From NCBI RefSeq assembly GCF_050624435.1, contig NC_134535.1:130190731-130254730 (forward strand): a DNA stretch of 64,000 nt. Direction: 5' to 3'. The stretch comes from Tenrec ecaudatus (lineage: Eukaryota > Chordata > Mammalia > Afrosoricida > Tenrecidae). Shown piece after piece: positions 30,516-57,501 of the stretch. Positions within the stretch are counted from its first letter, which is position 1, and each line of letters begins with the position of its first letter. The position numbers and the translations under genes were made by a program. A model generated the notes under the pieces. The model ran no database searches. It was not told the origin of the DNA and worked only from the letters and a program-made list of their open reading frames with translations.

Positions 30516-30544
30516 CCATCCCCTTCCCAACACCGCCTCAAGGG

Positions 30545-30665
30545 CTCCTCTAACTACATTATCGAGCTCTTGCTCTATGCCAAATACACGACTGAAATAG
30601 TCTCCCCGTAACTTTAGGTCAGTCGTATTCCCTCTGTTCAAGGATGAGGAAACTGAGGCTCACCC
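30545..30665 (-). repeat. MIR SINE fragment
   Basis: AAGGATGAGGAAACTGAGGCTCA is the complement of the MIR core. The preceding GAGCTCTTGCTCTATGCCAAATAC also fits. Confidence 0.65.
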
Positions 30666-31143
30666 TCTGAAGACGTGGGGGGTTCCTTGCGAGCACTGCA
30701 CTGCTTTCACTAGAAGCCACTCCACCGTGAGGCGGAGACGCCCGCTGCCGCGGGAAAGCTGGACGACCCGCGGCGGCACAGGGGTCACCGAGGGGCAAGG
30801 TCCTAACGGAGTCCATTCATTAGAAGCCCCGCCCATTCATTTCGAAGCAGATACTTACAAGCCCCGCCCCCTCGGCCCGCCCACCCGCGCCGCGAGGGAA
30901 GCGGCGGGCGGACTTCCGGGGAGGGGCGGGGTCAACGCTGGTTGGCTGGCTCCGGGCGGAAGTGAGGGGATCCAGTGATGTGAGGACGCTGGCGTGTGAC
31001 AGGGAGCGGGGAAAGGAAGGTGTCCGTCCAGGCTGCCTCTCCAGCCCTTCGCGCCCGGGGACCCTCCAGAAAAACAATCCAACACCCCGACCCCGCGGCT
31101 AGCCCCTTCCCCCAGGCTCTCTCCGCTGGATTTCGCCACCGTT

Positions 31144-31161
31144 ATGTGGGAAGCGAATCCG
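31144..31161 (+). CDS. PARP11: First coding exon (six codons), probable PARP11
   Basis: ATG TGG GAA GCG AAT CCG encodes M-W-E-A-N-P and is followed without gap by the consensus donor GTGAGT (phase 0). The start context is CCACCGTT-ATG with G at -3. These six residues match the N terminus I remember for mammalian PARP11, which then continues E-M-F-H-K in the next exon. PARP11 (about 330-340 residues) has a WWE domain followed by a PARP catalytic domain. It mono-ADP-ribosylates proteins and is linked to nuclear-envelope organisation, sperm-head shaping and control of interferon-receptor turnover. None of the domain exons is in the window, consistent with a very long first intron. The match rests on only six residues plus the island-and-donor context. 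Confidence 0.65.
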
Positions 31162-31167
31162 GTGAGT
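31162..31167 (+). other. Splice donor of putative PARP11 exon 1
   Basis: GTGAGT preceded by CCG fits the 5-prime splice-site consensus. Reading through it would give a low-complexity Gly/Arg-rich frame typical of translated GC-rich intron. Confidence 0.7.
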
Positions 31168-31469
31168 CGCCGGGCGGGACGGGGCGGACCCAGTGGGCGG
31201 GGTTGGTGGGAGAGGGGCGGGGAGGGGGCTCCCGGGAACTGGTCCTGGCCCAAGGATGGCTCTGGAGTTGGGCGGCCCGGAGATCCCGGTCCTTGTGGCC
31301 CCCACCGCCGCTACCTCAGAGAGATCTGTGGCGATGGCCCCGTGGATTTTCCAAATAATGCTTTATTTTACTGGCTGTGATTTCCCTCCCTCCCTCACCG
31401 TATCTTTAAAGTTCTGTTTTTATGTATTGCTTCCTAATGAGAGTTTCTGGCCTTCGCACCTGTTACTCT

Positions 31470-31494
31470 CCCCCCTCCCCCCCCCCCCCCCCCC
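31470..31494. repeat. Poly-C tract in intron 1
   Basis: About 25 nearly uninterrupted C residues, followed by GATTTCAG. The pyrimidine run plus CAG resembles an acceptor, but there is no matching exon. Confidence 0.9.
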
Positions 31495-32169
31495 GATTTC
31501 AGGAATAGCTGCCAGGGCCACCGATCCAGATCGAGGGGAGTGTACCCCGGGGGGTTGGATGGGCGTCCGAGGGAGCATCAGTCCCCCTGTTGCCTGCTTG
31601 GTGGACAGCCACGGACAATTCAGGGAGCGGATTGCATGTTCTAGGTTTCTCAGTGGTAGATGTTTAGCTGTTTTCTTTCAGTGGACAAAGCCGATGACCC
31701 GGGAACGTTTTCTCCGCAAGTCTGCCTCCTTCCTTGCTTGACTTCGGTGTTTGCATTATGTCTGTAGGTATTTTTGTCTACTTTGCTTTTTGTACATCTA
31801 TTTAAAGTGTAGCACTTATAAAGAATGAGGTTCATTTGCCAAGAGTATTCCTTCCAGCTCTTGTTAGGAGTTGAAGCCTCCTGGCAACATAGCAAGTGGA
31901 TACTATTTGGACCACATAAGTTGACTGGAAAAAACGGCAGTCACTCTGCAGCAGACTATTGAATGGAATATGTGAAATAATGCCCTTCATTTATTTAGTT
32001 TATTTTGTATGTGTTATTATTTGAAGTGAACTTGTTTTGTCACAAGACTCCCAAGTCCATTTCAGCTTCACTTTCTGCCTTTTTTTCTTAAGCCACTCAG
32101 ACCACTGTTTAGGTTTGGGAGCCTTCAATTATTTTTTAATTCCATGCTTACAGTAAGTCATTAACTATA
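31495..32169. other. No exon seen in proximal intron
   Basis: Unassigned DNA after the CpG island; CpG content drops quickly. The 182-codon open frame crossing the island edge is not supported as a gene. Confidence 0.4.
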
Positions 32170-32935
32170 ATCAATGCTGTTGTCAGGGTCTGTCAAGTCG
32201 ATTCCGACTCATAGTGACCTTCTATACAACAGAATGAAGCACCGCCCAGGCCTGGCGCAGCCCTCACAATCGTTGTGAATGTTTAAGTTCATTGTTGAAA
32301 CCACTGTGTCAGTCCATCTGGTTGAGGTCTTTTCATTCACTGACCATCACTTCTATCCATCGTGTTGTCCTTCTCCAGGGGCGGGGTCCTCCTGATAACA
32401 TGGCCAGATTAGGTGATGTGAAATCTTTTGTGTCCTTGCTTCGAAGAAGCATTCTGGCTACGCTTCTGGGAGAGATTCATTTGTTCTTCCGGCAGTCCAC
32501 GATACTTAAAATATTCGATTCTTCCTTGGTCTGCCTTGTCCAACTTTCACATGCATCTGAGGTCATGGAAAACACCGTGCTTGGGTCAGGCACCTCCTAG
32601 TCTTCAGAGTGACATCCTAGTTCTTCAGCCTTCTAAAGTGGTCTTAGGTAGCAGATTTGCCCAGTGCAAAAGATCCTTTGCTTTCTTGACTGCCGCTTCC
32701 GTGAGCATTGATTGTATATCCAAGTAAAAAGAAATCTTGGAGAACATCAATCTTTTCTCCATTCATTATGATGTCATCTGTTGGCCCAGTTGTGGGAACT
32801 TTGCTTTTCTGAATATTGAGTTATATTCATACTGAAGACTGCAATCTTTGACCTTCATCATTAAGTCCTCCTCACTTTCCGCAAGCAAGGTTGTGTTCCT
32901 CTGCCTACCACAGATTATTTATTCCTAAACCGTCA
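32170..32935 (-). mobile_element. RTE (BovB-like) 3-prime fragment
   Basis: On the minus strand it ends with the classic ...GTCACTATGAGTCGGAATCGACTTGACAG tail. It also contains the complements of CTTCTCCAGGGGCGGGGTCC, CAACTTTCACATGCATCTGAGG and TTGACTGCCGCTTCC. It starts just after the catalytic box, so it is 5-prime truncated. Confidence 0.85.
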
Positions 32936-33011
32936 TCCAATCCTAAAGCCACATTCTTCTTTAGTCCGCACTCCTTTTTCAATTTTGGGATTATAATTCC
33001 AGTATAAGTTA

Positions 33012-33206
33012 GAACAAAACCAAATCCAGTGCTATTCAGTTGATTCTGACTCATAATGGTCCCATAGAACAAAATAGAAATTCTCTGAACTATTTCTAAG
33101 GAGTCATCCTCACTGCATCTTTCTCCCATGTAGTGGCCTGGTGCATTCAAACTGCAGACCTTGTGGTTAGCAGCTGTATGCTTAATCACTGCACCACCAA
33201 GAGTCT
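33012..33206 (-). repeat. AfroSINE
   Basis: ACCAAATCCAGTGCTATTCAGTTGATTCTGACTCATAATGG tail, GCATCTTTCTCCCATG middle, and CAGACCTTGTGGTTAGCAGCTG..GCACCACCAAGAGTC head: a complete minus-strand copy. Confidence 0.85.
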
Positions 33207-33574
33207 TTATAAGTTAGAGAGCTAATCAGTAAATTGACCTGTGTTTTAAATATTTCATCTGGTTGAAAATGTGGTTATTTTGTACTAATTTGCTTGCACA
33301 TTATAGTTCCATCCCAGTTCATAGTGTAGCACTTGTCATCATCAAAGAGTATTTTGGCTAATATATATTCTCTAATACCACGGTATACTTGAGGAAAGTA
33401 AGTGATGCTAATTGATGTTAGCCAAAATAATTTACGATTCTGAAAATATACTGTACTTAAGGATTCAGTTTTATTACTTGTCATTAAAATTTATTAAATA
33501 TGTCTTTTCCCTCATTTTAATTAGTAGTCCTTTGTTGCTTTTCCATAGCATACCCATCACTCACCCAAATACGC
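33207..33574. other. No exon seen
   Basis: AT-rich intronic DNA; nothing recognised. Confidence 0.4.
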
Positions 33575-33705
33575 ATCCCTATAGTATCAGTTCCAGAGGA
33601 ACAAGGATTTTGCTTATTGTGTTCACTGTATTATCCTCAGACTAGAGAACAGAACCTGGTACTTAATAGGCACTCGGTAAATGTTTGTGGAGTGAATAAG
33701 TTATC
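33575..33705 (+). repeat. L2 LINE 3-prime end
   Basis: CAGAACCTGGTACTTAATAGGCACTCGGTAAATGTTTGTGGAGTGAATAA equals the L2 end ...gtgcctggcacatagtaggcgctcaataaatgtttgttgaatgaatg. Confidence 0.75.
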
Positions 33706-34141
33706 TTAGTTATGGTGAGTGGACTGCTTCTGTATTGTTCCCATTGTTTTTTCCCCCTTATCTATCTATACATCAGAATTTGCTATTGTATGTTTGTGAG
33801 TATTATAAAATCCTTCAGGGGCCCGCATGCATTTGGCTTATTATGTCACTCTGTTGCTTCTTTGTAAGACCACTCTCTGAAACCACCCTATGGATATTAC
33901 TTGATATGACTGTGATCCCACTTTCTTCTGACTCTCCTCTGCTACTGTGTTTTACTACTTACTGATAGTGTTTTGCTTCTTAAGAGCATATGAATAAGGG
34001 CATGCTCTTGAAAACACACTTAAGTTTCTGAGCTGTCTCTGATAATTGTTAGTTTCTTTTTGCAGAGGGGCTCCTTGAGTGTCTGGCTGTTCTCATGGAA
34101 TGAAATTAGTTTTCATGTTGCCCTAAGTCTCACCGTCAGAT
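33706..34141. other. No exon seen
   Basis: A TTTCTTTTTGCAG near 34,064 looks like a splice acceptor, but the sequence after it does not encode anything recognisable. Confidence 0.4.
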
Positions 34142-35680
34142 ATTGGTGAACATGAAGGTTCCAGGAATTGATGGAACACAAATTGAGATGTCTTAACACG
34201 GAGATGATACACTGGAAGCACTCACTCATCTATGCTAAGAAATTTGGAAGATAACTACCTGGCCAAGCAGCTGGATGGGATTCATATTTGTGCTCCCTCC
34301 AAAGAAAGGTGATCCCACAGAATGTGGAAATTACTGAACAATGCCATTAATATCACATGCAAGTAAAGTTTTGCTGACAGTAATTCCATTATGGCTGTGG
34401 CAGTATACAGTCAGGGAACGAACAATATCATTGCTGATGTCAGATGGATCTTTTCTAAAATCAGAGAATACCGGAGAGAGAAACAGCAGTGTTTTACTGG
34501 GTATACAAAGGCATTTGACTGTGTGGATCAAACTGTGGATAACAGAGATAGTATTTGAGAAGAATGGCAATTACACAGTGTGTAATTGTGCTCCTTGAAA
34601 AACCTGTGCACAGAGCCAGCAGTAGTTTGACTAGAGTAAGGGATATTGCATGATTTAAAATCAGAAAAGATGTGCATCCAGTTGTATCTTTCACTGCCGA
34701 GCAGTGATGTCACTGTGAAGACGAAAGTGCACTTGATTCAAGCCTTGGTCTTTTCAGTCACCTATGAATGTGAAAGTTGGACAAAGAAGAGTCATTTCAT
34801 TTGTATTAGTGCTGGTGGGGAATATTGAAAGTATGGTGGATTGCTAAAAAACAAACAAAAATGTATCAGAGAAAGCACAACCAGAGTACCTCTCATAAGT
34901 GAGGAAGATGTGACTTTGTCTCACGTGTTGTGGACCTGCTACCACGAGAGATCAGTCCCTGAAAAAGGACACCTTCTTGGTAATATAGAAAGGCAATGAA
35001 AAAGAAGAGACCCTTGACAAGATGGTGTGGTAATTATATAATCTCCTGTCAACTTGAGTGAAGGGGTGGAGTCTAGCCTGTCAATCAGGTCATAGCCATC
35101 GACGCCTCTGTGTGGGCATGGCCTTCTCCCTAGGATTCTGGGAACTCCTGTCTTCTTCCCTGGAGGTGTACTTCACATTCCTGTTGACAAGCCACATGGA
35201 GCTGTGCTGATGGAAACCAGAGTCCTGGGGCTAGAGGAGGCATATGGAGAGCCGAGCCAGTGCTGAGATGCTTCCACAAGACTTGCTCCCCACTGGCCTG
35301 TGATCTTCCTGCTTTCAGCATCATTGCATGTGCTGTGTGCGTCTGAAGAGGAATTCATGGGTTAATATTGGACTTATGGGCTGATATCGAATTTATGGAC
35401 TTGATATCGAACTTAGGGCCTTGATCTGGGCTGGGATGTTTTGGTGATGCATAATTACTTCTTGATATGAAGTTCTCTCACACATCTATCAGTGGCTCTG
35501 AATTTGTTTCTCTAGTCAACCTGGACTAACACAGATGGATTGAAACAATGGTTGCAACAATGTACTCCAACATAAGCACAATTGTGAGGATGTTGCAGGA
35601 CTGGGTAGTGTTTTCATTCTGTTGCACTTAGAGTTGCTGTTAGTTGGAATCAACTTGAGGGTACCTAACAACAACAACAA
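34142..35680 (+). mobile_element. RTE (BovB-like) element with internal deletion, split by an LTR
   Basis: Starts in the RT domain (AAGGTTCCAGGAATTGATGG), with TTTTACTGGGTATACAAAGGCATTTGACTGTGTGG for the F-I-D/D-C-V-D box. It runs to GTTGTATCTTTCACTGCC, then jumps to TGAAGACGAAAGTGC, skipping roughly 0.4 kb that would include the YADD box. It continues to the 3-prime end GGTACCTAACAACAACAACAA. A family A LTR interrupts it. Non-functional. Confidence 0.85.
35026..35533 (+). mobile_element. Solo LTR, family A (copy 3), inserted in RTE
   Basis: Starts TGTGGTAATTATATAATC and ends GACTAACACA. It is flanked by an exact GATGG 5-bp duplication, and removing the LTR restores the RTE phrase CAAGATGG-ATTGAAAC. 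It contains GTGGAGTCTAGCCTGTCAATCAGGTCATAGCC and GTGTGGGCATGGCCTTCTCC, shared with copy 2. Confidence 0.9.
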
Positions 35681-35689
35681 GAAAGTATT

Positions 35690-36366
35690 GATCAAACAAT
35701 CTGAGAAGCTGAGTATGAAGGAGAATCTGCCATTGGGTTTAAAGAAATCTTATCAACAACCTGTGATAGGCAGATGACAGAACCTTGCTTTCTAAAAGCA
35801 AAGATAACAGTGTACTTAGTAAGATCAAAGACTACAGCCTTCAGTGGGGATCACCGGACAACAAAGAAAACAGTCCTCACAACTATATCAATAAACAATA
35901 AACAGAAAAGAAGCTGTAAAGAATTTCATTTTACTTCGATCCATAATCAGTGTGCATGGAAGCAGCAGTTGTATCAAGTGACATATTGCATTGGGCAGAT
36001 CTGCTGCAAAAGACTTCTATAGAGAGTTACAAAAGCCAAGTTCTGCCACTTTGAAGACCAATGTATACCTGACCCAAGCCGCGCTTGGCAAAGAACTGCC
36101 AGAAGACTGAACAAATCCATTTCAGAAGAAGTACAACCACACTGTGTCTTACAAGTGAGAAGGGCAAGATTGTCTCAAAGACTTTGGATATATTATTGGG
36201 CGGGGCCAGTCATTGGGGAAGGACATGAAGGAATCTCAAGATGCTTTGATGCAGTGATTGCAGCAATGGGCTCAAGGGAGCCACCGCTGAGAGGATGTTA
36301 CAGAACCAGGAGGTGTATGGTTCTGTTGTACACTGGGTCATTTTGAGGTGGAACTGGCTGACAACA
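35690..36366 (+). mobile_element. RTE (BovB-like) 3-prime fragment, directly downstream of the previous one
   Basis: Begins at CAAACAATCTGAGAAGCTG, continues with ACCTGTGATAGGCAGATGACAGAACC (YADD region, tyrosine codon mutated) and CAGCAGTTGTATCAAGTGACATATTGCATTGGGCAG. It ends TTCTGTTGTACACTGGGTCATTTTGAGG..GACAACAC. Its start corresponds roughly to the point where the preceding RTE has its deletion. Confidence 0.85.
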
Positions 36367-36964
36367 CTAATAACATGTCTAATAAAATTCAGAAGGTATG
36401 AAAAACGCACAGTGCACCCGGAAGATACACGCAGATGGCCTTTGCATTACCTACCAGTTCAACTTGCTCGTGACCATTTCTTTCCATTGAATGAAGCATT
36501 CTGCATCGTAAAGGAAGGCTATGTTAACAGCTTTAATTCAAGTCATTTGCATACTTCTGGAAATATTCATGGGCTTAATATACCAACTTTGACCTGCAAA
36601 TATATCTCCTATTGCCAGTATGCACTCTGTATAATACTGGGGTCCACTGACAGGAATTTTGAGAAAATTTTACATGGACTAAGCTGTGGTAATTCTCAGA
36701 AGTAGCCACCCCTTTCTGTGTGAAAAGTCCGTGAAATGACTGGCATGTTGAAAATCACCACTGACCCTTCACTGTCACCTTGGAGGGAAAACACCAGAAT
36801 AACCAAAGAGCTCTAAGTGGTAGCACACAACTTTAGTTTCTACAATGGTAGTCATGAGTATTTGATTATGCTGAGTGTGATCATTTGACCTAAAATGCAG
36901 AACAAGGTGTCTAGGTCTATTGGCTTGTGCATCTTGCCCTCCAAGAGTTGGGTATACTCTAAGA
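36367..36964. other. No exon recognised
   Basis: A plus-strand open frame continues from the RTE tail through most of this stretch (ending at 36,705). Its residues match no family I know and it starts inside the retrotransposon, so it is left unannotated. Confidence 0.4.
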
Positions 36965-38240
36965 ATGGAAATAACTTCTGATAGTCTTTTATTGAGTGCC
37001 TACTACAGGCTGGTCAATTCCAGGTCTACAGTGGTAGACTGAACAGACCAGACCCCAGCTCTCCTGGGTGTGCAGTCTGGTGCAGGGAAGCAGACAAAAT
37101 AGCAATCCCAACAGTAGTCAAGAATTATATATAAAGGCATGTTTACTAGGAGGAGCCAGTAATGGACTGGGAAGATCAGGAAAGTCCACTTTGTAGGAGC
37201 AACTTACAGAAATCCAAAGGATTGAGCAGGAGTTAGCCAGGGAAAAATTGGGAGGTGGGATGGATGGTGCACACCAGAGGAACAGTGTGCATAAAGGCCC
37301 TGAGGGAGAATGGCTGGAGTCCATTGAACCAGGAGCGAGGCCAGGCAGTAGGTAGGCACCAATACATGCTTTGTGGCATACGTTGACGATTTTGAACTTC
37401 ACCCCTAGAGGGGTGACAACCTTTGAAGGATTTTATACAGGAAGTGGTAGCAGATTTTTGGTTTGAGAAAGCTCTTTGGTTACTGTGTGGAAAATGAGTT
37501 AAGTACTACAGGATAAGACAAGAGTACTGCCTCCCCCCCCCAAACCCTATCCCCCCACTAAACCCCAAAACATCTCTATCATGAACCTGTGCCTGTACAG
37601 ATGGAATTAAGGTTGATAATCAGCAATCCTGAGGTTATTTTGGATTATCCAGAGGGGCGTGGTGTTATCTTAGGGGTTGTTAAGAGGTAGAAGAGGAAGG
37701 CACCAGAGAGGGGGAGTCAGATATGAAGATGGAACAATGGTCAAAGAGCTGTCGTGTTGCGAGCTTTGCAATTGGAGGGAAGGGGTTACAGCCACATAAT
37801 ATGTGCATCCTTTAGAACCCAAAGGAAACATTCTCCCCTAGAACTTCTAGAACAGCATCAAGCCAACCTTGATCTCAACTCTGGACACCTGCAGAATTCC
37901 AAGATAATGAATTGACATTGTTTTAAGCCATGGTCATTTGTTCCATTGCATTGAAAACGAATGCAATTGGGTATACAGATGTGCAAATGGAAACTGGTCA
38001 TGAGGCTACTACTGTTAGACCAGGGAGAATGATGAGGTGACTCAGACTAAGTGGGAGTTGTGGAGCGGGAGAGAGTGGATCAATTTAAAGCTGTGCTTTG
38101 GATAATGAGTTCCAGGTTCAAGCTATTGAGGAGAAGATATTTCACTCCGATGAGAGATCGGAAACATTAGGTTGAATGTGCCTATAGAAATTCAAGTAAT
38201 AAAATCAGGGAGACCATTGAAGAGTTTGGAGGAGGGAGCA
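36965..38240 (+). repeat. L2 LINE, long diverged fragment
   Basis: TTTTATTGAGTGCCTACTACAGGCTGG, GGTGTGCAGTCTGGTGCAGG, CATAAAGGCCCTGAGGGAGAATGG, GGATTTTATACAGGAAGTGGTAGC and AGCTCTTTGGTTACTGTGTGGA follow a familiar ancient-LINE (L2) succession: cactgtgtgccaggcactg, aaaggccctgagg, gttttaagcagggg, tctggctgctgtgtgga. Confidence 0.6.
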
Positions 38241-38283
38241 GCACTGGAAATTGTCATTTGAGCTTCAACATCTCTAAAGAGCA

Positions 38284-40150
38284 TTTTTTAAAGCATTTTA
38301 TTAGGAGCTCATACAGATATTCAAATCCATATTTCCATTAGATCAAGCATAGCTGTACAATTGCCATTATTTTCAATATATTTTCTTTTTTATCTCCTTG
38401 ATATCAGCTCTCTTTTATCCCCTACCTTCCCCACTCTACAACCCCCATGAACCTTTAATATATATTATTATTATTGGGTCTTTTTTGGCCATGATTTATA
38501 CCATTCAATGTATCCATTCACCTACAATGCTGATATTTGTTCCCCTTGAGTGGGGTTACACAGTCGTAGTTGCTACAGTTCCCCCTTCTCCCTTTCCCTC
38601 CCCCTCTTCCTGTATCCTCAGGAAATTATTACTCCCATTACTATTTCTGAAGGGATTAACTCTCCTGAATTCCATGCTTTGAAATATCTTAATTGTACCA
38701 ATGCACATATACAGGTCTAGCAAGGGTAGTGAGGTAAAACTAAGGCCATAATAGTAGGAAGAGGAAATTTTAAAGAACTAAAGGATAGTTAGGTATTATG
38801 TCAGTGTTCTACTATACCCTGCATATATCGTCCCTTCTGTGTGGCCCTTCTGTGAGGGACTTTACAATTATCTAACATGGGTTTTGGGTTCCTTCACGTC
38901 AGCTTGATTGCTTGTTTTTGAATTTTGGATACCTATTTCCGTTGACACCTCATGATCACACAGGCTGGTGTACTTCTTCCATGTGGGCTTTGCTGTTTCC
39001 CTGCTAGAGGGCTGCTTGTTTAACTTCAAGCCTTTAAGACCTCAGGTACTATATCTTTAAATAGCTGGGCACCATCAGCTTTCTTCACCATATTTCCTTA
39101 TGCACCCATTTTGCCTTCGGGCGATCGTGTCAGGAAGGTGAGGATCATACATTGCCACATTATTAGAGCAAACTGTACTTGTGATGAGGTAAGATGTAAG
39201 TAGAGGCCCAAAGTCCACCTGATTCCTTATTGTATTTACATTATATGTATATGGACAAATACACCTATCTCTATATAGTTCCATATTTACATATATACAT
39301 ATCTATATTTATACCTCTAAATATAATTTTTACTTCCTTATTGTTTCCTCTATTTCTTTTTTTCTTTCTTCCTGCTTCACTATCATGTTCACCCATCATT
39401 CGCCTCCTGGTAATTCCTCCCAGGTATATCTCAATTGATCAAACATCACCAGGGATCCTACACCCTCCTCATTGTCAATTTTAGAATCCTTGCTATTCCC
39501 CTATCCCTGATCTCCCCGTCTCCTCCTCTCCCATATCCCCCCACCCCCAACCATCGGTTCCATAGCAGTCTCCTTGAGATTGCTTGTTTATCTTATATAG
39601 ATAGACATTAAAAAAAAAAAGCATAAAAGTTCCAGGTCCAACTGCTGACCTTTGTGAATATCCCCTAACCAGTTCAGATGAGGAGCCAAGCACAGCTCTG
39701 GAGTCAGAAATCTACAACCAGGATTCCTCAGGGATTTCGTGTCTTTGCTCCCATTGCTGATCTGTTGCACTCCCCTCTTGGTTTACCCCCATGTGGCAAA
39801 CCATGGGGAGCTCAGACCGGCCAGTGCTGTCCTCTAAAGTGCTGTGATGTGGGGAGGGGACATCATGCCTCAGGCTGACTTTGCAGAACTCTGAACTAGC
39901 TGCTCCTAGCTGGAACCTCCCCCTCAGGGCTTGGTGTGCCAGAACAAGGTCTACTCTCTCTCTCTTTCCCTCTTTTGTTCCCATGTGAACAGACACACCT
40001 GCCGCCCTCCCGGGACTGTGTCTTCAGTACTGCCCCCTTGGGAGGGGCGTGTCATAACTCAAGGGGGCCTGGGTTTATAATCCTCTCTGATAATGGACTG
40101 CCCATGCAGGTAAGTTACCCACAAGGGTGGGTGCACCAGGATGAGGTATA
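38284..40150 (-). mobile_element. Young L1 3-prime tail, ~1.87 kb (copy 2)
   Basis: The left end is the A-tail and AATAAA of the minus-strand element (GCATTTTATTAGGAGCTCATAC). It then shares with the other copies TACCATTCAATG.., the purine-rich tract (seen here as CCCCTTCTCCCTTTCCC) and one CTTCAAGCCTTTAAGACCTCAGG module. It also has the ATATACATATC AT-rich block and GCTGATCTGTTGCACTCCCC toward its 5-prime end. It extends further 5-prime than copies 1 and 4-6. No open reading frame. Confidence 0.8.
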
Positions 40151-40423
40151 GCGAGTCTAAAAATCAGCTGAGTAGATGAGATTTCTAAGATAGTGTTGCT
40201 TAAACATTCAACACGCATGCAGACCATTAATTTTAAAAAATCTTTAAAAAATGATTATTCTTAAACAAGCAGTATTTTTTAAATCAATGTTTTTATCATT
40301 GCAGGTTTTCCCTTTTTCTTTTACAGCCTTTTACAAGGTTTCTCGGTCTGACTATGATAGCTTGAGCTGTAGCCTCCAGCAGACATTTTGATTTTCACTT
40401 TATATTTTGGCCAAATTAGAAAA

Positions 40424-40617
40424 CGGTTAGGTGCCACCCAGCCCATCTGACCCGTGTGACAGACAAGAACTGCTCATAGGAGTCCCAAAGCTGTGATCTT
40501 AATGGGAGCAGATTGACAAGACTTTATCCCCACTGAGGGGCTAAATAAAGGGCTTGAACCACAGGCCTTTCAGGTAGCAGCTAAGCCTTTAACCATTTCT
40601 CCCCTAGAGCTCCTAAA
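40424..40617 (-). repeat. AfroSINE, diverged
   Basis: GGTTAGGTGCCACCCAGCCCATCTGACCC tail, ATGGGAGCAGATTGACAAG middle, and CTTGAACCACAGGCCTTTCAGGTAGCAGCTAAGCC head with AGGGCTCC-like end. Confidence 0.65.
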
Positions 40618-41647
40618 CTAGAAAACCTCACACCACTATTAATGGACTGTATCAAGGGCCACACCGGTTCTTGCTGGCTCTGTCAGATGCTTTGTAATAC
40701 CAAAATAAAAAGAGACGTAATCATGGGAAGATTTCTCTTTGAAGACCATTTCTAGTGCTCTGTCAGTTTCAAGTTGACAAGCCTGTAATATAAAATCATC
40801 CTAGGGGTAGGTGCTTCAACTCGGCAGAGTGTTGAGAAGATGAGAACCAATCACTTCAGTCTCTGGAAACTCTTTCCTCATGTTTTGTTGTAACATTTGA
40901 ATAGGTGGGGTTTGTTGTTACTTTTAAGATTTACCCATAAGATTTAAGATCAGTCTCACTCTCTGGTAAGTAAAGAAAATCATGAGGTTTCCAGAAGAAA
41001 CCACACCCTAGCAATTGACACCCCCCCACCCCCTATAGTTTGGTGCCTCTTTCTTAGCCATAAAAGATGGGCCTTTGGGTTCTTTTAAAATTTATCTCTT
41101 ATACCCACCTAGGACAGGCCTGTGAAAAATATAGAAGTGATCTCTACTGGTATTAGTATCATGAAAAAAAATGTTTCATCTTTTTTTTCAGAAACTCTGC
41201 CCTCCCCCTGGCTCCCTGACAGCTAACAAACTTGACTGGGAAAAGTAATCTTGCAGGCACTGCCATTTCCATAAACCCGAGAGCACATATTCTAAGTCGT
41301 CAAGCTTTGATGTCACTCACGGTTCTTTATTTCCTTCAACACTCTGTGGTGATCAGGAAACACATCTTTGGGTAATATAGCCATACCTTGTCTTGCTGCA
41401 TGTTTAGTTGGAGCTCTCTCAGCTTTGAAACCGTTGTGCCTTTTTCAAATGCGTAGCATACAGAAAGTACCATCCCAATGAAACCCGCCTTACGCTATGA
41501 GTTGTCCGTGGCAAGTGGAACAAAGAGTTCTGGAGCACTTACAATACATCGCAGTCGGTATTGTGGGGCTTCAAAAAGGTCCTGGGAAAATGGAATGAAA
41601 AGAAATGGAGTTTTTTTTTCAGGAATTTGTTGCAGTTCCCTTGCATA
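40618..41647. other. No exon seen
   Basis: Intronic DNA with nothing firmly recognised. GGGGCTTCAAAAAGGTCCTGGGAAAATGGAATGAAAAG near the right end resembles a mariner-type terminal segment but cannot be assigned. Confidence 0.4.
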
Positions 41648-42128
41648 TGAGGGTGAGTCAAAAGTATTGCTTCCAATTCATACATATATAGGCTTATTCC
41701 AAGCAAAACGTGTTCCAGTGTATCTTTGGGATGCGTAGATGGCTGAGACCAGGTCTGTCATCCATACAGTTGTCCAAGTTTCTTTAAGGTGCCTTCATAA
41801 GACAAGGTCCGATGGAAATTGGCTTCTGAGGGTATCCCTAGGCCAGTCAGATTCAAGGCAGAGAGGTCAGCTCAGAGGTTATGGTGATTTTTATTTTGTA
41901 TCCCAAAGAGGTACTCTTGGTAGTTTTTCTAAAAACAAAACAAAATAAAAAAACAGGAAGATGATCACTTGGCGGTTATTAGGAAAACATTTGAAGAAAA
42001 TTGAAAACTGCACTTTTGAAAAAAAGACCAGGAAAGTTGTGCCAAGTAATATTTTTCTATCATGACAATACCTCTGCTCATTCTTCAAAGGAGCAGGGGC
42101 TATCCTAAGGAAATTTTGTTGGGGTACT

Positions 42129-42825
42129 TGTGGGGGACCAGCCTCCCCACAACCTAATGGGCCCAAGGGGTGGTTGTGTCATTGAGGGGTAAATTAAAGA
42201 GACATCAGACAAGATTAAGCATGCAAGGGCTCACCTCTCAGTCATGACTTCATAAGCCAGGTCTGAGCAGAGAGCAGTGTAATGTAATCTCACGGGTTTA
42301 TATAATCGCAGACACACAGGCTGCGGTAAGCACAGTAACAGGGAGGGGTTGTACAATTGACAGTACATGTAACAGGAGGGGGAAGAGCTCGGGGTATACA
42401 CACAATAGGAAGGGGAGACACTAGGGGCACACATGTGACAGGAAGGCATATACACTCCAAAATGGCCGGACTCCAGAGTCAAGATGGCAGCCTAACCTTG
42501 GTCATTTGAGTTGGCTTGACCTTAGGTGTCTTTGGGTTCTTCAGGGGACCCATGAGCGCTGACAACCTTCAGGCAGATAGCCTTCAAGCAGTTGACCTCC
42601 AAGTATATAGTCAGTGACCATGTGTTTGCAAACAGTATTGTAGATTTGGCACTATTGGGGGTGGCAGGCATTGTGGGATATTACTTTTACTTAGGAGAAT
42701 GTGAGCGGGCTGCATCTCCAACCCACAAACATACAGGTTCCCTCCACGGGAGCCTTGGCCTCCCAAACTCCTTAACTATGAATGTTGAGAGTTGTCTGCA
42801 TACACTTTCTTCCTGGTTTTCCATA
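42129..42825 (-). mobile_element. Solo LTR, family B (copy 2), inserted in mariner relic
   Basis: Flanked by GGTACT on both sides (42,123-42,128 and 42,826-42,831), a 6-bp duplication typical of betaretrovirus-like (ERVK-type) integration. On the minus strand it begins TATGGAAAACC (TG presumably mutated) and ends CCCCCACA. A TATATAAACCCGTGAG promoter box lies in the middle. The AATAAA is weak. It pairs with the plus-strand copy at 26.2 kb; the two are solo LTRs in opposite orientation, not a provirus. Confidence 0.85.
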
Positions 42826-42990
42826 GGTACTTGCCCCAACTGGCCTCTAGCCCTTGCCTTGTCCCATTACACTTCTTTTTGTCCCCCACTCTCAAGAACA
42901 ATTGAAAGAAACATGATTTGAGTCCCTGGAGGATGCTCAAACTGCATTTGGATGTATAAGTGGAAGAACATTATGCTTCAGGGAAGGGTT

Positions 42991-43180
42991 AAAAAAATCC
43001 CAAACCCTTAGAGCCATTGAGTCTCTTCTGATTCATAATGACTCCATTTAGGGTTTCTGAAACTGTCAATCTTTACAGGAGCAAGCAGCCTCATTTTTTA
43101 CCCATGAAGAGACTGGTAGATTTGAACCTCCCACTTTGTGGTTCGCAGCCCAACACCTAAACCACAGCTCCACCAGGTCT
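42991..43180 (-). repeat. AfroSINE inserted in mariner relic
   Basis: Minus-strand copy with its A-tail at the left (AAAAAAATCCCAAACCC). It is flanked by CAGGGAAGGGTT and CAGGGAAGGGCT, a 12-bp target duplication with one mismatch. It contains GATTTGAACCTCCCACTTTGTGGTTCGCAGCCC (head) and CTCCACCAGG end. Confidence 0.9.
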
Positions 43181-43310
43181 CAGGGAAGGGCTGGAGAGAT
43201 GGAAGCCTTTCCTTCAGAGCTAGATGAAGGATATCCAGGGAAACAGTAATTTCACATGTTTATATATTGGTTTAATAAAGGTTTCTGTGATTTTATAACA
43301 ATACATTGAC

Positions 43311-44414
43311 CCTTGTCTATGCCAAGAGCTAATTCATATTTTCTCCACAAGTAACATGTTTAATTATAAAATAAAATCTATGCAACAGAGCAGCATAGAC
43401 TTGAAACAAAATCATCTAATAAAGAACTTCTTGTCAATAGCTTGCTTCCTTCCCCCTCCCCCTATTCTCTAACGTGGCATTAAATTTGGATTAACCAGCT
43501 TCTCATCAATGTTGATTTAGCTGAGGAATGCATTGTTGAGTAATGCTTGGTCTCTTCCCTATCCTTATGAACAAAGCAAAATACTTGTGGGCTTTGAGTG
43601 CTAGCTGATAAAAATCGATCAACATAGAGTTTATGGTGCCATCTGCTTAATCTTTAATAACAGTGGGATAATGTAGTATAGTGTTTCTCAAAGTGGCTGG
43701 CCAACCCCTGGGCACAGGAATAATCTGGGGGTGGGGTGGGAGCGGGGCTGCAAAAGTAGATACCTACGTTTTATCCTAGATTATGGGTGTAATAGAAAAG
43801 TTTTTAACTACTTGGGGAGAGAGGGGCGCCCTGAGTAATTTTTCCCCTCCCCCTGAAAAGAGGACTGTAGGCCATTATGTCTGGGAACCTATGCTAAAGT
43901 GAATGGTAATGTTAAAGAGAATGAAGGTATGTTGGGAGGAGTCATTGATCTTAAAACTTTGTAAAAATGTAGTATATGAACAAATTTCTTGCATTAATTT
44001 TTGCTCTGAAAATGACCGAGCCACTTTACAGTTCCAAAGGATGCTGAGAAAGAAAAGAAGACAGATAAGTCATAAGGAGCTCTCATTTACAAGCAAGAGT
44101 TTGAGTAGTAACCAAAGCACAAAGGGGGTTGACTTGTGGCCTAAAATATAAGCTCTACCTGAAGGTGGGATGAACTGGAAATCAAGTGAAGAGTCAGTCA
44201 AAGCAAAGGGCAACCTGAAGATGAGAACTGACCAGTGTCCTTACGTTGTGTCAAGCTCATTGGAGGTGCCAGGGAGGGTTCTCCGCTATGTTTTGGGCAG
44301 GGGTGGAAGAGGTTGGGCTAGAAGACGGAGGAATTAAATCTGAGTGGGCTTTGAGAGCACGGAGAGTGAAGAAAGACACTTCGGGCCTGTGGACAAACAG
44401 TGTTAAGATTTCAG
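43311..44414. other. No exon seen
   Basis: AT-rich intronic DNA; short open frames only, nothing recognised. Confidence 0.4.
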
Positions 44415-44572
44415 GTTACAATGGGACTGTTAACTGCAAGGAGGACAGTTCAAGCTCACCCACTACTCCATGGGAGTAAGATGAGGCTAGCTGCTCCCAT
44501 AAAGATTTACAGCCTCAGGAACCCTGCGTAGGGTTGTTATGAGTCAGAAAAGCAGTGGGTTTTAATGAAATG
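44415..44572 (+). repeat. AfroSINE
   Basis: GGACTGTTAACTGCAAGGAGGACAG, CACCCACTACTCCATGGGAG, AAAGATTTACAGCCTCAGGAACCC and GTTGTTATGAGTCAGAA with GCAGTGGGTTTT end. Confidence 0.85.
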
Positions 44573-44974
44573 AAACGGGGTTTTCAAAAGTATTCGTGCC
44601 ACAGGAGGAAGAATGAGGGAAAATGTAGCAAAGAACAGATGTGATGATTATCAGCAAATAGCAAGATAACAGACTGTGGCCTAGCTATAACTAATGGTCA
44701 TACCAGATGCAAACTCTGAAGACCCAAGTGAAAAGACAGAGCTTAAAAGAGCACAACACAACTCTTGACTGTCTCCAGGAACCATACTGCAAGGATCCGC
44801 ATATAGCATATAACATGCTCTGAAGGGTATCGTTACCGCAGATAGCCAGTGTTTAATATCTGTTAGTCTTAAATTTTTTCAAAGAAAAAAGTAAAATGAA
44901 TCATTTTCCAAGGATGATGATAATCAAATATTTTTTTATTTCATAACAGAGCTTCAAAATATATGAAACAAGAT
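44573..44974. other. No exon seen
   Basis: Unassigned DNA between an AfroSINE and a small inverted-repeat transposon. Confidence 0.4.
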
Positions 44975-44976
44975 TA

Positions 44977-45090
44977 CCATATATACCCGAGTATAGGCTG
45001 AGTTTTTCAGCACATTTTTAATGCCGTTTTTGTGGTAAAATTAAGTGTGTTGGCTAATATTTTGGTTGGCTCATACTCGTGTGTATATGG
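44977..45090. mobile_element. Mariner-type MITE, 114 bp
   Basis: Terminal inverted repeats CCATATATACCCGAGTATAGG (left) and the complement of GAGTATGAGCC-ACGTGTGTATATGG (right). About 19 of 26 positions pair. TA dinucleotides at both borders fit the TA target duplication of Tc1/mariner elements. The arms contain CCGAGTATA..CTGAGTTTTTCAGCACATTTT, wording known from mammalian mariner MITEs. No coding capacity. Confidence 0.8.
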
Positions 45091-45189
45091 TAATAGAACA
45101 GCAAGGCGAAATTTAACAATCCAGAGTTATTTTAGTACTGTCTCATTAATTGGCAGTGAAAATAGAAAACAAACAAGGATCTAGATGCG

Positions 45190-45398
45190 TCTGGCAGCTG
45201 GTAGTGGTTACAAGTTGAGCAGTTTACCATAAGGGGGTTAGCAGTTCGAAACCACCAGACCTTCCATGGGAAAAAAGATGAGGCTTTCCACTGCTGGTAG
45301 GAGTTACAGTATCAGAACCCCCCAGGGGCAGTTCTGCCCTTTCCTGTAGGATCGCCATGATTTCTAATTGACTGGATTGCAGTGAGTTTGGGATTGCT
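45190..45398 (+). repeat. AfroSINE
   Basis: AGTGGTTACAAGTTGAGC head, AAGGGGGTTAGCAGTTCGAAACCACCAG, AAGATGAGGCTTTCCACTGC, GGGGCAGTTCTGCCC, GGATCGCCATGATTTC, and TTGCAGTGAGTTTGGG end. Confidence 0.85.
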
Positions 45399-46639
45399 CA
45401 AGTAGTTTAACTTAATTAGCATTTATAGGATGCCACTCAACAACAGCAGAATTTACATTCCTGTCAACTTCACAACGCTTAACCAGAAAGGCCCTATTCT
45501 GGGTCCTAAACAAGTCTCAACAAATTAAAGAGAATTCAAGTCATATGAAATATATTTTCTGATCAATTAGAATTAGAAACCTATAACAAAAATTCCTAAA
45601 TATGGGTGAGTAAATAATATGCCTCCAAATAACCTATGAGTCAAAGGAGAACTATAAAGGGGAAATATGAAAGCCCAAATTAAAATTGATAAGCTGCTGC
45701 TAAGCAGTGCCCGGAAGGAAATTTATAGCTAAATTAAAGACTATATTAGAAAAGTAGAAGGGTCACAAATCAGTTCCATCAGCCATCTCCGCTTCTTTCA
45801 GAGACTTGGAAGAGTAAATTCCAAGTAAGTAGAAACAAGAAAACAATAAAGGTGAGAGCAGAAGTCACCAAAACAGAACAACAGAGAAAAATCATGCAAA
45901 CTAAAGGTGGTTCTTTGAGACTGTCAATAAGACTATCAGTAGAGCTGGTAAACGTCTAGCCCAGAGATCAGGAGAAATGAGAGAAGACAAAAGTTAACCA
46001 ATGCCGGAATGAGACAAGTAACATCACTGTATAATCAATAACCATCGAAAGGCTAGTGAGGGGATGTGATGGGCAACTTTATGCCAATAGAAATGACAAC
46101 CTAGATGAAATGGCAAACTCCTAGAGAGACACAACTACCCACGCCTACGAATAACCCAGGAACTAAGGGAGGACTTTGTGTTTGGAACTTAGCCCACAAA
46201 GAAGGCCAGAGGCTTTCTGCCAGAGATTTAAGAAAGTCATACTATGAATTCACACAAACTAACAGGATATTAAGGAAGAGAAACTACTCTCAAGGTCATT
46301 CTACTAGGTTGTCCTGACCCTGTCAGGGAAGCTTGTCAAAGATAATACAAAAGAAGAAAACTGCAGACCAATACATGAACATAGATGCAAACATTCAAAA
46401 CAAAATAATAAATTGAACCTAATAATACATAAAGGTGAAGAATATAGTATGACCAAGTGATGTTTATCCCAGGAATCCATCATTAGTTTAATATTTGCAC
46501 GGCATACAATGTAATTCACTGTATACACTCACATGAAAGAGCATATGGCCATTTCAGTGCGTGCACAACAAGCATTTGACAAGATCCACTGTCCATTTTA
46601 TATAAATACATACTCTCAGCCAACTAATAGGGCTTACAA

Positions 46640-47188
46640 AGAATGTGTAGGTAAGGGTGAACACTGTACTGGGTTACTCAGTCCTTGCACATTCCCAGAA
46701 AGGCTTCTTTTCTTGACCTGCCTTTGGTAAACTAGAAAACTCACTCCGGAGCGCTTCCTCTGATGAGTGTATTTGTGTACTTGGGGCCTAGCCTAGTTTG
46801 TCCAGAGAGGTCATACTCACTGTATCTATCATCAACACCTGCCTTTCCTCTTAGTGTCTTCTGAAGCTTCATTCATTAAGGGACTCACACAGGTGTTGTA
46901 CACCTATATAACTGACTCCCAATAAAAGCAACCTTTTGCACCTGTTATACTTTGCTGCCGGTGGAAGGAATTAAGTTGTATCCTATGCTACTCCACTAGG
47001 ATAGAAGACTTGGAGGCTTGCATATGGTTTCCTCAGGACTCTACCTCTTGGGCCGTTCCCCTTTGCCAATTTTACTCCGTGTCTTTCATTGTAATAAACT
47101 ATAACCATTAGTTTAACAACTTCTGAGTCCTGTGAGTCCTTTGAGCACATCATCAATGTTTAGGGTGGGCTTGGGGAATCTTGACACA
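46640..47188 (+). mobile_element. Probable solo ERV LTR inserted in old L1
   Basis: Contains CACCTATATAACTGACTCCC (TATA-like), CCAATAAAAGC and, near the end, CATTGTAATAAACTATAACC (poly-A signal). CTTCTGAGTCCTGTGAGTCC and GGGTGGGCTTGGGGAATCTTGACACA follow, wording typical of class I ERV LTR ends. L1 ORF2 sequence stops at its left and resumes at its right. The exact left border and target duplication were not resolved. Confidence 0.65.
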
Positions 47189-47422
47189 CGGGATGTGAAA
47201 ATTGTTCATTGAATACTGCAGTTAATGGTGAAAGACTGAGTTCTTTCTACCTAAGATCCGTTACAAAGCAATCCTGTCTATTCCTACCATTTTCATTCAC
47301 TGTTGTACTGGAGAGCCTACCCCAAGCAATAAGGAAGTAACAAGCATCTCTAGATTAAAAATAACGAAGTGAATTTTTTTATTTCAGAAAAAGATGCTAA
47401 ATAAAGACAGTATGCTGGACTT

Positions 47423-50179
47423 AAAATAATCATTTTATTAGGGGCCTCATACAACTATTACAATCCATACATACATCAATTGTGTAAAGCACATTTGTAC
47501 ATTCGTTGCCCTCATCATTCTCAAAATTTTTGTTCTCCACCCAAGCCCCTGGCATCAGATCCTCATTTTTCCCCTCCCTCCTCCCTCCCCACTCCCTCAT
47601 GAACCCTTAATAATTTATAAATTATTATTTTGTCATATCTTGCTCTCTCCCACGTCTCCCTTCCCCCACTTTTCTGTTGTATGTCCCCCAGGGAGGAGGT
47701 CACATGTAGATCCTTGAAATAGGTTCCCCCTTTCTAACCCACCCTACCTATGTCCTCCTAGTATTGCCACTCTCACCACTGGTCCTGAAGGGATCATCCA
47801 CCCTGGCTTCCCTGTGTTTCCAGTTCCCATCTGTACCAGTATATATCCTCTGGTCTAGTCAGACTTGCAAGGTAGGATTTGGATCATGGGGGGGGGGGGG
47901 AAGAATGGCAGGAGGAAGCATTTAGGAACTAGAGGAAAGTTGTATTTTTAATCATTGCTACATTGCACCCTGACGGGCTTGTCGCCTCCCCAAAACCCTT
48001 CTATAAGAGGATGTCCAGTGGCCGACAAATGGGCTTTGGGTCTCCACTCTGCACTCCCCCATGCATTCACTGTGGTACGACTTTTTGTTCTGATGATGCC
48101 TAATACCTGATCCCTTGACACCTTGTGATTGCACAGGCTGGTGTGCTTTTTCCATGTGGGCTTTGTTGCTTCTGAGCTACATGGCCGCTTGTTTACCTTC
48201 AAGCCTTTAAGACACCAGATGCTGTATCTTTTGAAAGCCGGGCACCATCAGCTTTCACCACATTTGCTTATGCACCCATTTGTCTTCAGTGATCATATCA
48301 TGGAGATAAGCATGCAATGTAATGATTTTTTGTTCTTTAATGCCTAATAACTGATCTCTTCAGCACCTCGTGGTCACACAGGCTGGTGTACTTCTTCCAT
48401 GTGGACTTTATTGCTTCTGATCCAGATGGCCGCTTGTTGACCTTCAAGCTTTTAAGACCCCAGACACTATCTCTCTTGATAGCCGGGCACCATCAGCTTT
48501 CTTCACCACATTTAGTTGGTCACCCATTTTGTCTTCAGCAGTTGTGTCAGGAAGGTGAGCATCACAGAATGCCAATGTAATAGAAAAAAGTGTTCTTGCA
48601 TTGAGGGAGTACTTGAGTGGAGGTCCAATGTCCCTCTGCTACCTTAATACTAACCTTATAAATATATGCACATAGATCTATTTCTCCATCCTCGTGTATA
48701 AACATATTTGCATATGTACATATCTTTATGAAGACCTCTATAAATACCCTCTGCCTCCCAGCTCTTTCCTCTCTTTCCTTTGACTTCCCTCCTGTCCCAC
48801 TATCATGCTCTGTCCCCACCAGGGTTCCAGCAATTCCTCTTAGTTACATTACCCTTGATCATGCCCAACCAGGCCTCCCATACCCTCCCCACTGATTTGG
48901 ATTGCTTGTTCCCTTCTCCCTGGGTTTATTAGCCCCACTACTTTCCCCCCACCTCCCGTCTTTCATGTCCCCATGGAACTATCAGTTCTGTTGTTTTTTT
49001 CTTCCAATTGTTCATTCAGCCTATCTTTTGTAGACAGACCTGCAGAGATATTAATATGCACAAAAACAAGACAGAGCACAACCAAGCAACAATATACAAC
49101 AAAACAACAAAAAACCAATGACAAAAACAAAAAACACATCAAGAAAGAAAAGCATGTAGCTAGTTCAAGGATTGTTTGTTGGCCTTTAGGAATGTTTTCC
49201 AGTCCAGTTTGTTGGGGCACCATGCCCTGGCCCCAAAATACATCTTCAGCATTCCCTAGGGACCTCGCCGCTCCTTTCCTTTGCTGTTCTGTTGCACCCC
49301 CTTAGTGTTTTGCTTAGGTGTGGAGGGATCCGTTCGGGTGCAGTTCCCACACTGTGTCTCTGGTGTTGTCCCCTGTAGGGCTATGGGTCAGTGAGGGACT
49401 TCATGTCTCATAGTGGGGCCGGCCATGTGGTCCTCTCTGTCAACTGGCTACTTTAATTGGGAACATCAGCCTCCTGGCCTGGTGGGCCATAATGTGCTCC
49501 ACTCTCTCCTTCTCCCCCTTCATCTACTCCCGTGTATTCTGATCAGATATGTCCCTCTTTCGGAGCTGTAGATTCAGTGCTGTCCTTTGAAATAAATTCT
49601 TCTGAGGGTAGGGGAAGATGTCCCCTTAGTAGTTGGGGTTGGGGCCGGCCCCCCAGATCTCTCCACTGGTTCCCTACTCCACGCCGGCATGTTGCATTCA
49701 CACCCTGGGGCACTGGGTTGAAGTCTGGCCCCTCTTTCCCTGTGGAGACTCAAACAAGGGTTAGTGCCCTTTTCTTTATTATTATTATTTTCCTTTCCCC
49801 ACCTCCTTTTTAGTTGTCTACCATGTGTATCCCTGTATTTGGTCTGGTCCCTGCCATATTACCCAAACCTCACCCCAGGAATATTTGGATACCGTAGCTT
49901 TTTCCCTATGCCCCATTTGCCTTTTTTTTTTAAAGCTTACCTCAGCAGCCTTTCAAGTCTTTCTATATTTAAGTGAATGCTATCTTGGGGTCTGTTTTCT
50001 CTTCTCTGCCCTCTGGGTGAGGTTGTTCTATTTGGCAGTCTCTTATTTATGCTTGGTGAGTGTTGTTGTTCTGCCCATACTGGGTCAGCAAGGATCTTTT
50101 GTAGGGCTGGTTTTCTTCTAATGTATTCTTTGAGTTTTTCCTTGTCTGGGAAGACGCTTCTCCATCTTTCTTGCCAAAT
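47423..50179 (-). mobile_element. Young L1 3-prime tail, 2.76 kb, with target duplication (copy 3)
   Basis: Flanked by TATGCTGGACTT at both sides (47,411-47,422 and 50,180-50,191). The right copy continues TTAAAAA, so the target was TTTT/AAAA-like, the L1 endonuclease preference. The minus strand ends in an AATAAA-containing tail. Inside are a long purine-rich (minus strand) tract, two ~244-bp tandem modules with the CTTCAAGCCTTTAAGAC motif, ATATATGCACATAGATC, and a 5-prime end near TTTTTCCTTGTCTGGGAAGACG, which recalls internal L1 sequence. No reverse-transcriptase frame is visible. Confidence 0.88.
48109..48596 (-). repeat. Two-unit tandem module inside young L1 tail (period ~244 bp)
   Basis: The block from GATCCCTTGACACC.. 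through GGCCGCTTGTTTACCTTCAAGCC, GCCGGGCACCATCAGC and ATGCACCCATTTGTCTTCAG is repeated once, with the second unit starting GATCTCTTCAGCACC. The same two-unit structure, with the same second-unit variant, occurs in copy 4 near 57 kb. Copies 2, 5 and 6 have one unit. Confidence 0.88.
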
Positions 50180-50267
50180 TATGCTGGACTTTTAAAAATG
50201 GGCCATAGAACTTAGTAAGGTTTTCAAATACATTATCGATATACAAAGTTATTGTATCACTTAGGTA

Positions 50268-50440
50268 CAAACAAACAACGACTAACCCAAACTATGAAGT
50301 TGCTGCCGACTCATAGTGACCAGTAGAACTGTCCCTGTGAGTTTCTGAGACAAATTCTTTATAGGAGCAGCTGGTGGTTTTGAACTGCTGACCTTGTGGT
50401 TAACAGCCCAATTTGTAACCACTCTGCCACCAGGGCTCTC
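50268..50440 (-). repeat. AfroSINE in old L1
   Basis: GTTGCTGCCGACTCATAGTGACCAGTAGAACTGTCCC tail; TTTATAGGAGCAGCTGGTGG; GAACTGCTGACCTTGTGGTTAACAGCCC head; CCACCAGGGCTC end. The L1 reads on both sides. Confidence 0.88.
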
Positions 50441-51669
50441 TATTAGGTGCTAGCAACATGTAATTGGAGATTAAAGTTGAAGTGAAAATTCAGAATGATA
50501 ACAAAGTACAATTTACTTAGTAATAAATTGTATATAAAAGATGTACATGATTTATGCAGTTAAAAGTATAAAACATTAAAGAAATAGAGGGAGAATACTG
50601 AAGTGATCAGAATACTCAATATTGTTAAAATGTCTATTTCTCTCAGGTTGATCAAAATTCAAAGGAAGCTGAATAACCAAAGAACTTTTTAGGAGCAAGA
50701 ACTAGCAAGTAGGAGGGCTACCTGACACACAGACTCACAGTGAAATTACAGTGAAAACCCATATGATATTGGCAACAAGATTAGAAATCAAACAGTAGAA
50801 AATATGAACAGACAACTGATATTCCACAAATTAAAATTCATTCAAGTATGGACAGTAGTTTCAACAAATTGTGCTAGCACAATCACAAATCCACATATAA
50901 GAAAATGACCTTCCGTCCTTACTTTGTACCATATAAAGCTTAACATGGATTATGGACCTAAATGTAAAACCGAAAACTTAAATTTATAGAGAAAATATTT
51001 GTGATGTCAGGTTAGACAAAGATTTAAGTGTATTACCAGAAGCATGATTCATGAAAAACAACACCACAATGTAAATATTCTGCTGTTCCAAAGACACAGA
51101 TAAGAGAATGAAAAGATAGCTATAGATGGGAGAAAGTAGTTGTAAAGCATGTATCTGGTAAAGGACTTACATCCCCAATATAAAAGGACTCCTGAGTATA
51201 ACAATAAACCCAATTTTAAAATGAGCTAGCGATTTGAATTGAAGCTTCACCAAAGAAGACAAGCAGATAATCCATGAAAAGGTGATCGGCACCATCATTG
51301 TCCTCATTTGTCAACTGTTGTCAAATCGATTCTGGCTTAATCTTTAGGAAAATGCAAATGAAAGCCACAGTGGGATACCGCTCCATAACTAAGGATGGTC
51401 GAAATGAGAAAGACAAGCACCCACCGACCCTTGGTGAGAAGCTAGAGCAACTAGAACATTCATACATTGCTGTGGGAAAGTAAAACGATGCAACCACTTA
51501 AAAAAATACCTTTCCCCCCTTTTTAAACTTTTATAAAACTGTAAATACACCATTATAATCCAGCCATTGAACTCCCAAGTATTTCCTGATATCAACCCAA
51601 AATATACAGTCCATGTCCACACAAAGCCTGGTGCACAGATGCCAGAGCAGCTTGCTTCGCAATGGTAAA

Positions 51670-51765
51670 ACCAGAAACCAAACTCACTGCCATTGAGTCA
51701 GTTCTAACCCAGCACAACCCTGCAGGTAGGGTAGAACTGCCCCTGTGGGTTTCTGAGACTGTAAT
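51670..51765 (-). repeat. AfroSINE 3-prime half in old L1 tail
   Basis: CCAGAAACCAAACTCACTGCCATTGAGTCAGTTCTAACCCAGCAC and GGGTAGAACTGCCCCTGTGGGTTTCTGAGACTG are the minus-strand AfroSINE tail; the head is absent. Confidence 0.85.
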
Positions 51766-53140: not shown

Positions 53141-53286
53141 TTTAGTAGGTGTGAAGTTATTGCCCCATTAGAATTTTGATATGCATCGCCCTCCCGAGTA
53201 ATGATCTTGAACCACTTCTCATTTGCCTGGTAGCCATTTGTGCATCTTTTTTTGAGAAATGGTATTCAACCACTTTGCCCACTTTT

Positions 53287-53912: not shown

Positions 53913-53914
53913 GG

Positions 53915-57498: not shown

Positions 57499-57501
57499 GT
57501 G

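What the first reader, a model, noticed from the sequence alone, without database searches (positions are those of the whole stretch)
30720..31167. Single host-gene landmark: CpG island and six-codon first exon fitting PARP11
A CpG island with GC boxes and two inverted ETS motifs contains ATG plus five codons (M-W-E-A-N-P) and then GTGAGT. The peptide equals the remembered PARP11 start, and the known PARP11 isoform difference is consistent with a short first coding exon. It would make about 33 kb of the window the gene's first intron.
Basis: partly seen in the sequence, partly recalled or inferred. Interest (0 to 1): 0.75.

Follow-up and report, generated by a model that had tools for sequence, protein, structure and literature searches.

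The report
First coding exon of mammalian PARP11
This stretch is the promoter and tiny first coding exon of an ordinary, well-known mammalian gene, PARP11, whose remaining exons lie just beyond the end of the window.

Summary
Window 31144-31161 reads ATG-TGG-GAA-GCG-AAT-CCG, then donor GTGAGT, inside a CpG island (30528-31501) that is single-copy in the 364 kb searched. The degenerate pattern for M-W-E-A-N-P plus GTRAG occurs once in the 3.9-Gb genome, here. On the same strand of the contig the predicted exon E-M-F-H-K follows TTTCAG at window-equivalent 71202. After it comes the rest of PARP11: 8 coding exons, one open readable frame, GT at 7 of 7 donors, AG at 6 of 7 acceptors, the seventh reading N. 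Intron 1 is 40,040 bp, 32,839 of it in the window. Of 120 listed PARP11-like proteins (of 390 matches), 12 begin MWEANPEM; a cattle model matches into the 5' leader. Neighbours fit the human order as I recall it: CCND2 515 kb upstream and divergent, CRACR2A 142 kb beyond the stop on the same strand. No transcript data were available and the species was not established. Correct but ordinary. A translated leader upstream of the ATG remains a speculative side question.

The parts
30528..31501 (.). CpG island, the presumed PARP11 promoter; single copy in the 364 kb searched
30912..30918 (-). ETS-type core ACTTCCG (CGGAAGT on the minus strand)
   Evidence: factor name recalled, binding not tested
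30957..30963 (+). ETS-type core CGGAAGT
   Evidence: factor name recalled, binding not tested
30978..30983 (+). ATG-TGA, a minimal start-stop upstream frame if the transcript begins before it; the only other plus-strand ATG in 30891-31200
31000..31143 (+). 5' leader, open in frame with the ATG for 48 codons (TGA at 30997); its last part is alike in a cattle gene model
   Evidence: 18 of 26 leader residues (24 of 32 with MWEANP) identical to cattle-hybrid P0002 over 31066-31161
31144..31161 (+). first coding exon of PARP11, M-W-E-A-N-P, phase 0
31162..31167 (+). splice donor GTGAGT of intron 1
31162..64000 (+). the part of PARP11 intron 1 inside the window (32,839 of 40,040 bp); its acceptor TTTCAG ends at window-equivalent 71201, outside the window

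Best explanation
This is the CpG-island promoter, 5' leader and first coding exon of the PARP11 gene of a placental mammal. Shown from sequence: the six-codon exon, its donor, the matching phase-0 exon 2 some 40 kb on, six further exons completing one readable open frame, and the neighbouring genes. Inferred: transcription starts in the island, probably near the ETS-type and GC-box cluster, and splicing joins 31161 to 71202. The product would be the longer PARP11 form (MWEANP-EMFHK...), a WWE-domain mono-ADP-ribosyltransferase. Transcripts that start elsewhere and splice into exon 2 would give the shorter form beginning at M-F-H-K.
For: Unique whole-genome match. PARP11 exons 2-8 in order on the same strand; exon 1 itself is too short for tblastn and was found by pattern. 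A 211-residue piece of the locus protein is 83-94% identical to the six best-scoring PARP11 representatives. PARP catalytic domain and the C-terminal half of WWE above Pfam cut-offs in that piece. Of 120 proteins listed and retrieved, 12 begin MWEANPEM, 2 more begin M(M)WEAN (bilby, platypus), 8 begin at MFH. Cattle-hybrid model P0002 reads ...LDFATAMWEANP-EMFHK and matches the window into the leader, E 1.5e-11 with filters and composition correction off. CCND2 divergent at C62:129685282-129707260 and CRACR2A on the same strand at C62:130433061-130467600, each with its exons in order.
Against: No transcript, CAGE or splice-junction evidence was available. Two stretches read N (window-equivalent 72101-72205 and 100645-100724), so the exon 3 acceptor and two protein segments are unseen. 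The whole-genome WWE family search lists 11 matches, none at this locus, probably because the domain is split between exons and partly N. The search for PARP11 copies elsewhere did not complete. Many annotated PARP11 models begin otherwise: 105 of the 120 lack MWEAN, though this includes distant vertebrates and at least one PARP12. One of the 5 CCND2 rows and 3 of the 7 CRACR2A rows on C62 have a stop inside the matched stretch, not looked into.
Confidence: 0.97

Rival explanations
1. The island is the promoter of PARP11, but its ATG is little used: most protein starts at the exon-2 methionine (MFHK), and MWEANP is mainly leader.
For: 8 of 120 retrieved PARP11-like proteins are annotated from MFH, and 7 more have other sequence before an internal MFH (cattle P0002, the eighth on that list, has MWEANP there). 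The ATG context has G at -3 but T at +4, moderate by recalled Kozak rules.
Against: M-W-E-A-N ahead of the exon-2 part is kept in representatives from primates, a whale, rodents, a bat, cattle, bilby and platypus, which suggests that it is coding.
Confidence: 0.15
2. A chance short open frame in an unrelated CpG island.
For: Short ATG-to-donor frames are not rare: 3 ATG-N15-GTRAGT on one strand of 164 kb, this one included.
Against: The degenerate pattern occurs once in 3.9 Gb, and that one is upstream of PARP11 exon 2 in phase; the leader matches a cattle PARP11 model.
Confidence: 0.01
3. A processed or duplicated PARP11 pseudogene.
For: Not excluded by a whole-genome copy search, which did not complete.
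Against: Introns are present, the readable frame has no premature stop, all readable splice sites are GT and AG, and the neighbours are CCND2 and CRACR2A.
Confidence: 0.01

Closest known systems
Mammalian PARP11 (protein mono-ADP-ribosyltransferase PARP11, 338-aa form)
   Same: MWEANP-E-MFH start, WWE and PARP catalytic domains; neighbouring genes CCND2 and CRACR2A (human order recalled)
   Different: Exon 2 differs just after MFHKAEE: GLLKTTEKAMEEMDTSD here, FLSKTTNSEMDEMDTSD in right whale P0004, same length. Nothing differs in kind.
PARP12
   Same: WWE plus PARP catalytic domain; after PARP11's own WWE entry 2dk6 the best PDB matches of human PARP11 are PARP12 catalytic domains
   Different: A different gene; the locus protein matches PARP11 representatives best

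Membership tests
PARP11 orthologue | PARP catalytic domain (PF00644) | tested here: met
   E 4e-28, above cut-off, profile positions 1-110 of 199 in the 211-residue readable piece; the rest of the domain is partly N
PARP11 orthologue | Single N-terminal WWE domain (PF02825) | tested here: met
   profile positions 34-67 of 67 above cut-off; the N-terminal part is read in exon 2; the middle is N. The whole-genome WWE search did not list the locus
PARP11 orthologue | Short first coding exon M-W-E-A-N-P joined in phase 0 to E-M-F-H-K | tested here: met
   sequence and phase only:
PARP11 orthologue | Closest to PARP11 and not to PARP12, PARP7 or others | tested here: met
   the 56 rows (E 1e-90 or better) are named PARP11, PAR11, plain poly [ADP-ribose] polymerase or hypothetical protein, as far as the cut names show; best E 1.4e-135. 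No tree was built
PARP11 orthologue | Synteny with CCND2 and CRACR2A | tested here: met
PARP11 orthologue | Transcript joining exon 1 to exon 2 | not testable with these tools
   no RNA data in the tools
PARP11 orthologue | Mono-ADP-ribosyltransferase activity and nuclear-envelope location | not testable with these tools
   reported for known PARP11 in PMC9404506 (passages seen)

The most novel reading that the evidence does not exclude
The 5' leader is open in frame with the ATG for 48 codons, and its last stretch (APSPRLSPLDFAT) is identical in a cattle model, so a non-AUG start there could give PARP11 a conserved N-terminal extension. Against it: the cattle model is computational, further upstream its match to the window shifts into other frames that hold stops here, and conserved promoter or leader DNA that happens to be open is simpler.
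Probability: 0.03. Interest if true: 0.4.

Novelty: already known. Interest (0 to 1): 0.1.

Why it matters
It anchors the window: orientation, gene and neighbourhood are fixed by an 18-base exon. It also shows that a six-codon exon 40 kb from its partner, of a size that gene predictors can easily miss, can be recognised from raw sequence. Biologically it is an ordinary orthologue.

Tried and rejected
Bacterial-type promoter and terminator scan of 30500-31600: 0 and 0, and not meaningful for a mammal. Rfam at gathering thresholds on the window: 0 matches. Three interferon-response patterns in 30401-31500: none. N-termini of six other PARP11 models (P0003, P0005, P0014, P0056, P0061, P0079) were searched in the 164 kb; P0008, P0030 and P0048 were not. 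Five gave no convincing match (best E 0.002 for koala P0079, an arginine-rich stretch outside the window). Ferret P0056 gave two short pieces (12 and 8 aligned columns, two frames, E 0.002 each) at 31212-31241 and 31276-31299 of the island, which may mean a longer first exon in ferret; not followed further. Neither CCND2 nor CRACR2A was found in the 364 kb searched first (two chance CCND2 rows, E 2.7 and 2.8, no CRACR2A row); both lie outside it. Species: the best matches over 211 residues are placental mammals at up to 94%; no tenrec record appeared by name, and a tenrec is neither confirmed nor excluded.

Papers: MWEANPE occurs in 0 held papers. Searches (15 of 31 papers listed; 4 of 4; 12 of 73; 8 of 193) were seen as listings with the starts of abstracts. 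Passages were seen of PMC9404506 and PMC8240438, no whole text; the latter gave nothing on first exons. Meyer-Ficca 2015 is not held and is known here only through PMC9404506.

Full report
Observation. Window 31144-31161 reads ATG TGG GAA GCG AAT CCG and is followed by GTGAGT. It lies in a CpG island of 974 bp (30528-31501; GC 0.621, CpG O/E 0.74, 69 CpG; the whole window has O/E 0.28). The region 30720-31207 holds 9 GC boxes, and the two ETS-type cores at 30912 and 30957 point in opposite directions. By blastn at E 1e-5 the island has no second copy in the 364 kb of chromosome held, unlike the repeat-rich intron beside it (1 row against 27).

Chance. The pattern for M-W-E-A-N-P with all synonymous codons plus GTRAG has 1 match in the 3.918-Gb assembly, at C62:130221874, which is window 31144; the reversed control has 0. 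An earlier exact pattern found 0 because I had guessed other codons.

Of 8 rows, 7 are PARP11 exons on the plus strand, in order; the eighth is a chance match (E 1.6, minus strand, window 15787-15692). Exon 2 begins TTTCAG|GAG ATG TTT CAC AAA at window-equivalent 71202, giving E-M-F-H-K in phase 0 as predicted. Intron 1 is 31162-71201, 40,040 bp. Exon 1 is too short for tblastn and was located by pattern.

Gene model (one search is an earlier listing in which exons 5 and 7 end too far right). Coding exons: 31144-31161; 71202-71330; an exon ending at 72269 whose start is in N; 74718-74793; 83622-83694; 83774-83904; 98937-99088; 100505-100821 including the stop. Donors are GT in 7 of 7 introns; acceptors are AG in 6 of 7, the seventh being in N. 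The readable frame is open to the stop. Two stretches of N (72101-72205 and 100645-100724) hide parts of the coding sequence and were left as they are.

Relatives. A protein search gave 390 matches, of which the best 120 were listed and retrieved; at least one of these is named PARP12. Of the 120, 12 begin MWEANPEM, bilby P0010 begins MWEANRAM, platypus P0016 MMWEANP, 5 bird or lizard proteins MW[GA]A, and 8 start at MFH (starts). The rest start otherwise, so the counts describe annotation of cluster representatives, not usage. Cattle-hybrid model P0002 carries MWEANPEM inside a longer N-terminus; this stretch matches window 31066-31161 with 24 of 32 residues identical, 18 of 26 in the leader alone, E 1.5e-11 with filters off. 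This ties the leader as well as the exon to PARP11. A 211-residue piece of the locus protein matches the six best-scoring PARP11 representatives at 83-94% identity.

Neighbours. CCND2 has 5 of its 20 rows at C62:129685282-129707260 on the minus strand, in exon order, 80-95% identical, 515 kb left of exon 1. CRACR2A has 7 of its 8 rows at C62:130433061-130467600 on the plus strand, in order, 58-97% identical, 142 kb beyond the PARP11 stop. One CCND2 row and three CRACR2A rows there have a stop inside the matched stretch; this was not looked into. Divergent CCND2 and same-strand CRACR2A is the human arrangement as I recall it.

Against. The WWE family search of the whole genome listed 11 matches and none at this locus; the domain here is divided among exons and partly N. 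No RNA evidence exists in the tools. Copies elsewhere were not excluded, since that search did not complete.

Mechanism. The island most likely starts transcription in the ETS/GC-box zone, and splicing joins six codons to exon 2 across 40 kb (inferred). The product is a small mono-ADP-ribosyltransferase; for known PARP11 a review reports nuclear-envelope location, a sperm-head defect in knockout mice and a role in interferon signalling (PMC9404506, passages). Other first exons joined to exon 2 would let translation begin at MFHK, which fits the two annotated kinds of start.

Novel reading. The leader is open in frame for 48 codons (31000-31143), and APSPRLSPLDFAT is shared with the cattle model. 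Further upstream the cattle match falls in other frames that hold stops here (rows at 30867-31106, E 5e-6, and 30854-31141, E 2.5e-4), so the shared open frame is seen only from about 31066. A translated extension is possible but unproven. Overall the finding is correct and ordinary.

Noticed in passing
7089-7861: A second CpG-rich stretch (773 bp, O/E 0.82, 45 CpG), without a second copy in the 364 kb searched. It resembles, by recall only, the 3' part of an old LINE; no gene was identified.
   Followed up: partly
13757-14218 (+) and 25441-25920 (-): Decayed frames of an interspersed repeat: the first has a weak RVT_1 match (E 0.0004, below the curated cut-off), the second no Pfam match but about 69% DNA identity to 14004-14412. 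They have 8 and 13 further blastn rows in the 364 kb. By recall they look like an RTE/BovB-type LINE, which would fit an afrotherian.
   Followed up: partly
31212-31299: Just downstream of the donor, two short pieces of the island in two frames resemble the N-terminus of ferret PARP11 model P0056 (E 0.002 each), hinting at a longer alternative first exon in ferret.
   Followed up: partly
30978-30983: ATG-TGA start-stop in the leader, a minimal upstream frame if transcription begins before it.
   Followed up: no
30238-30278: A perfect 20-bp tandem duplication (2.0 copies) about 250 bp upstream of the island.
   Followed up: no
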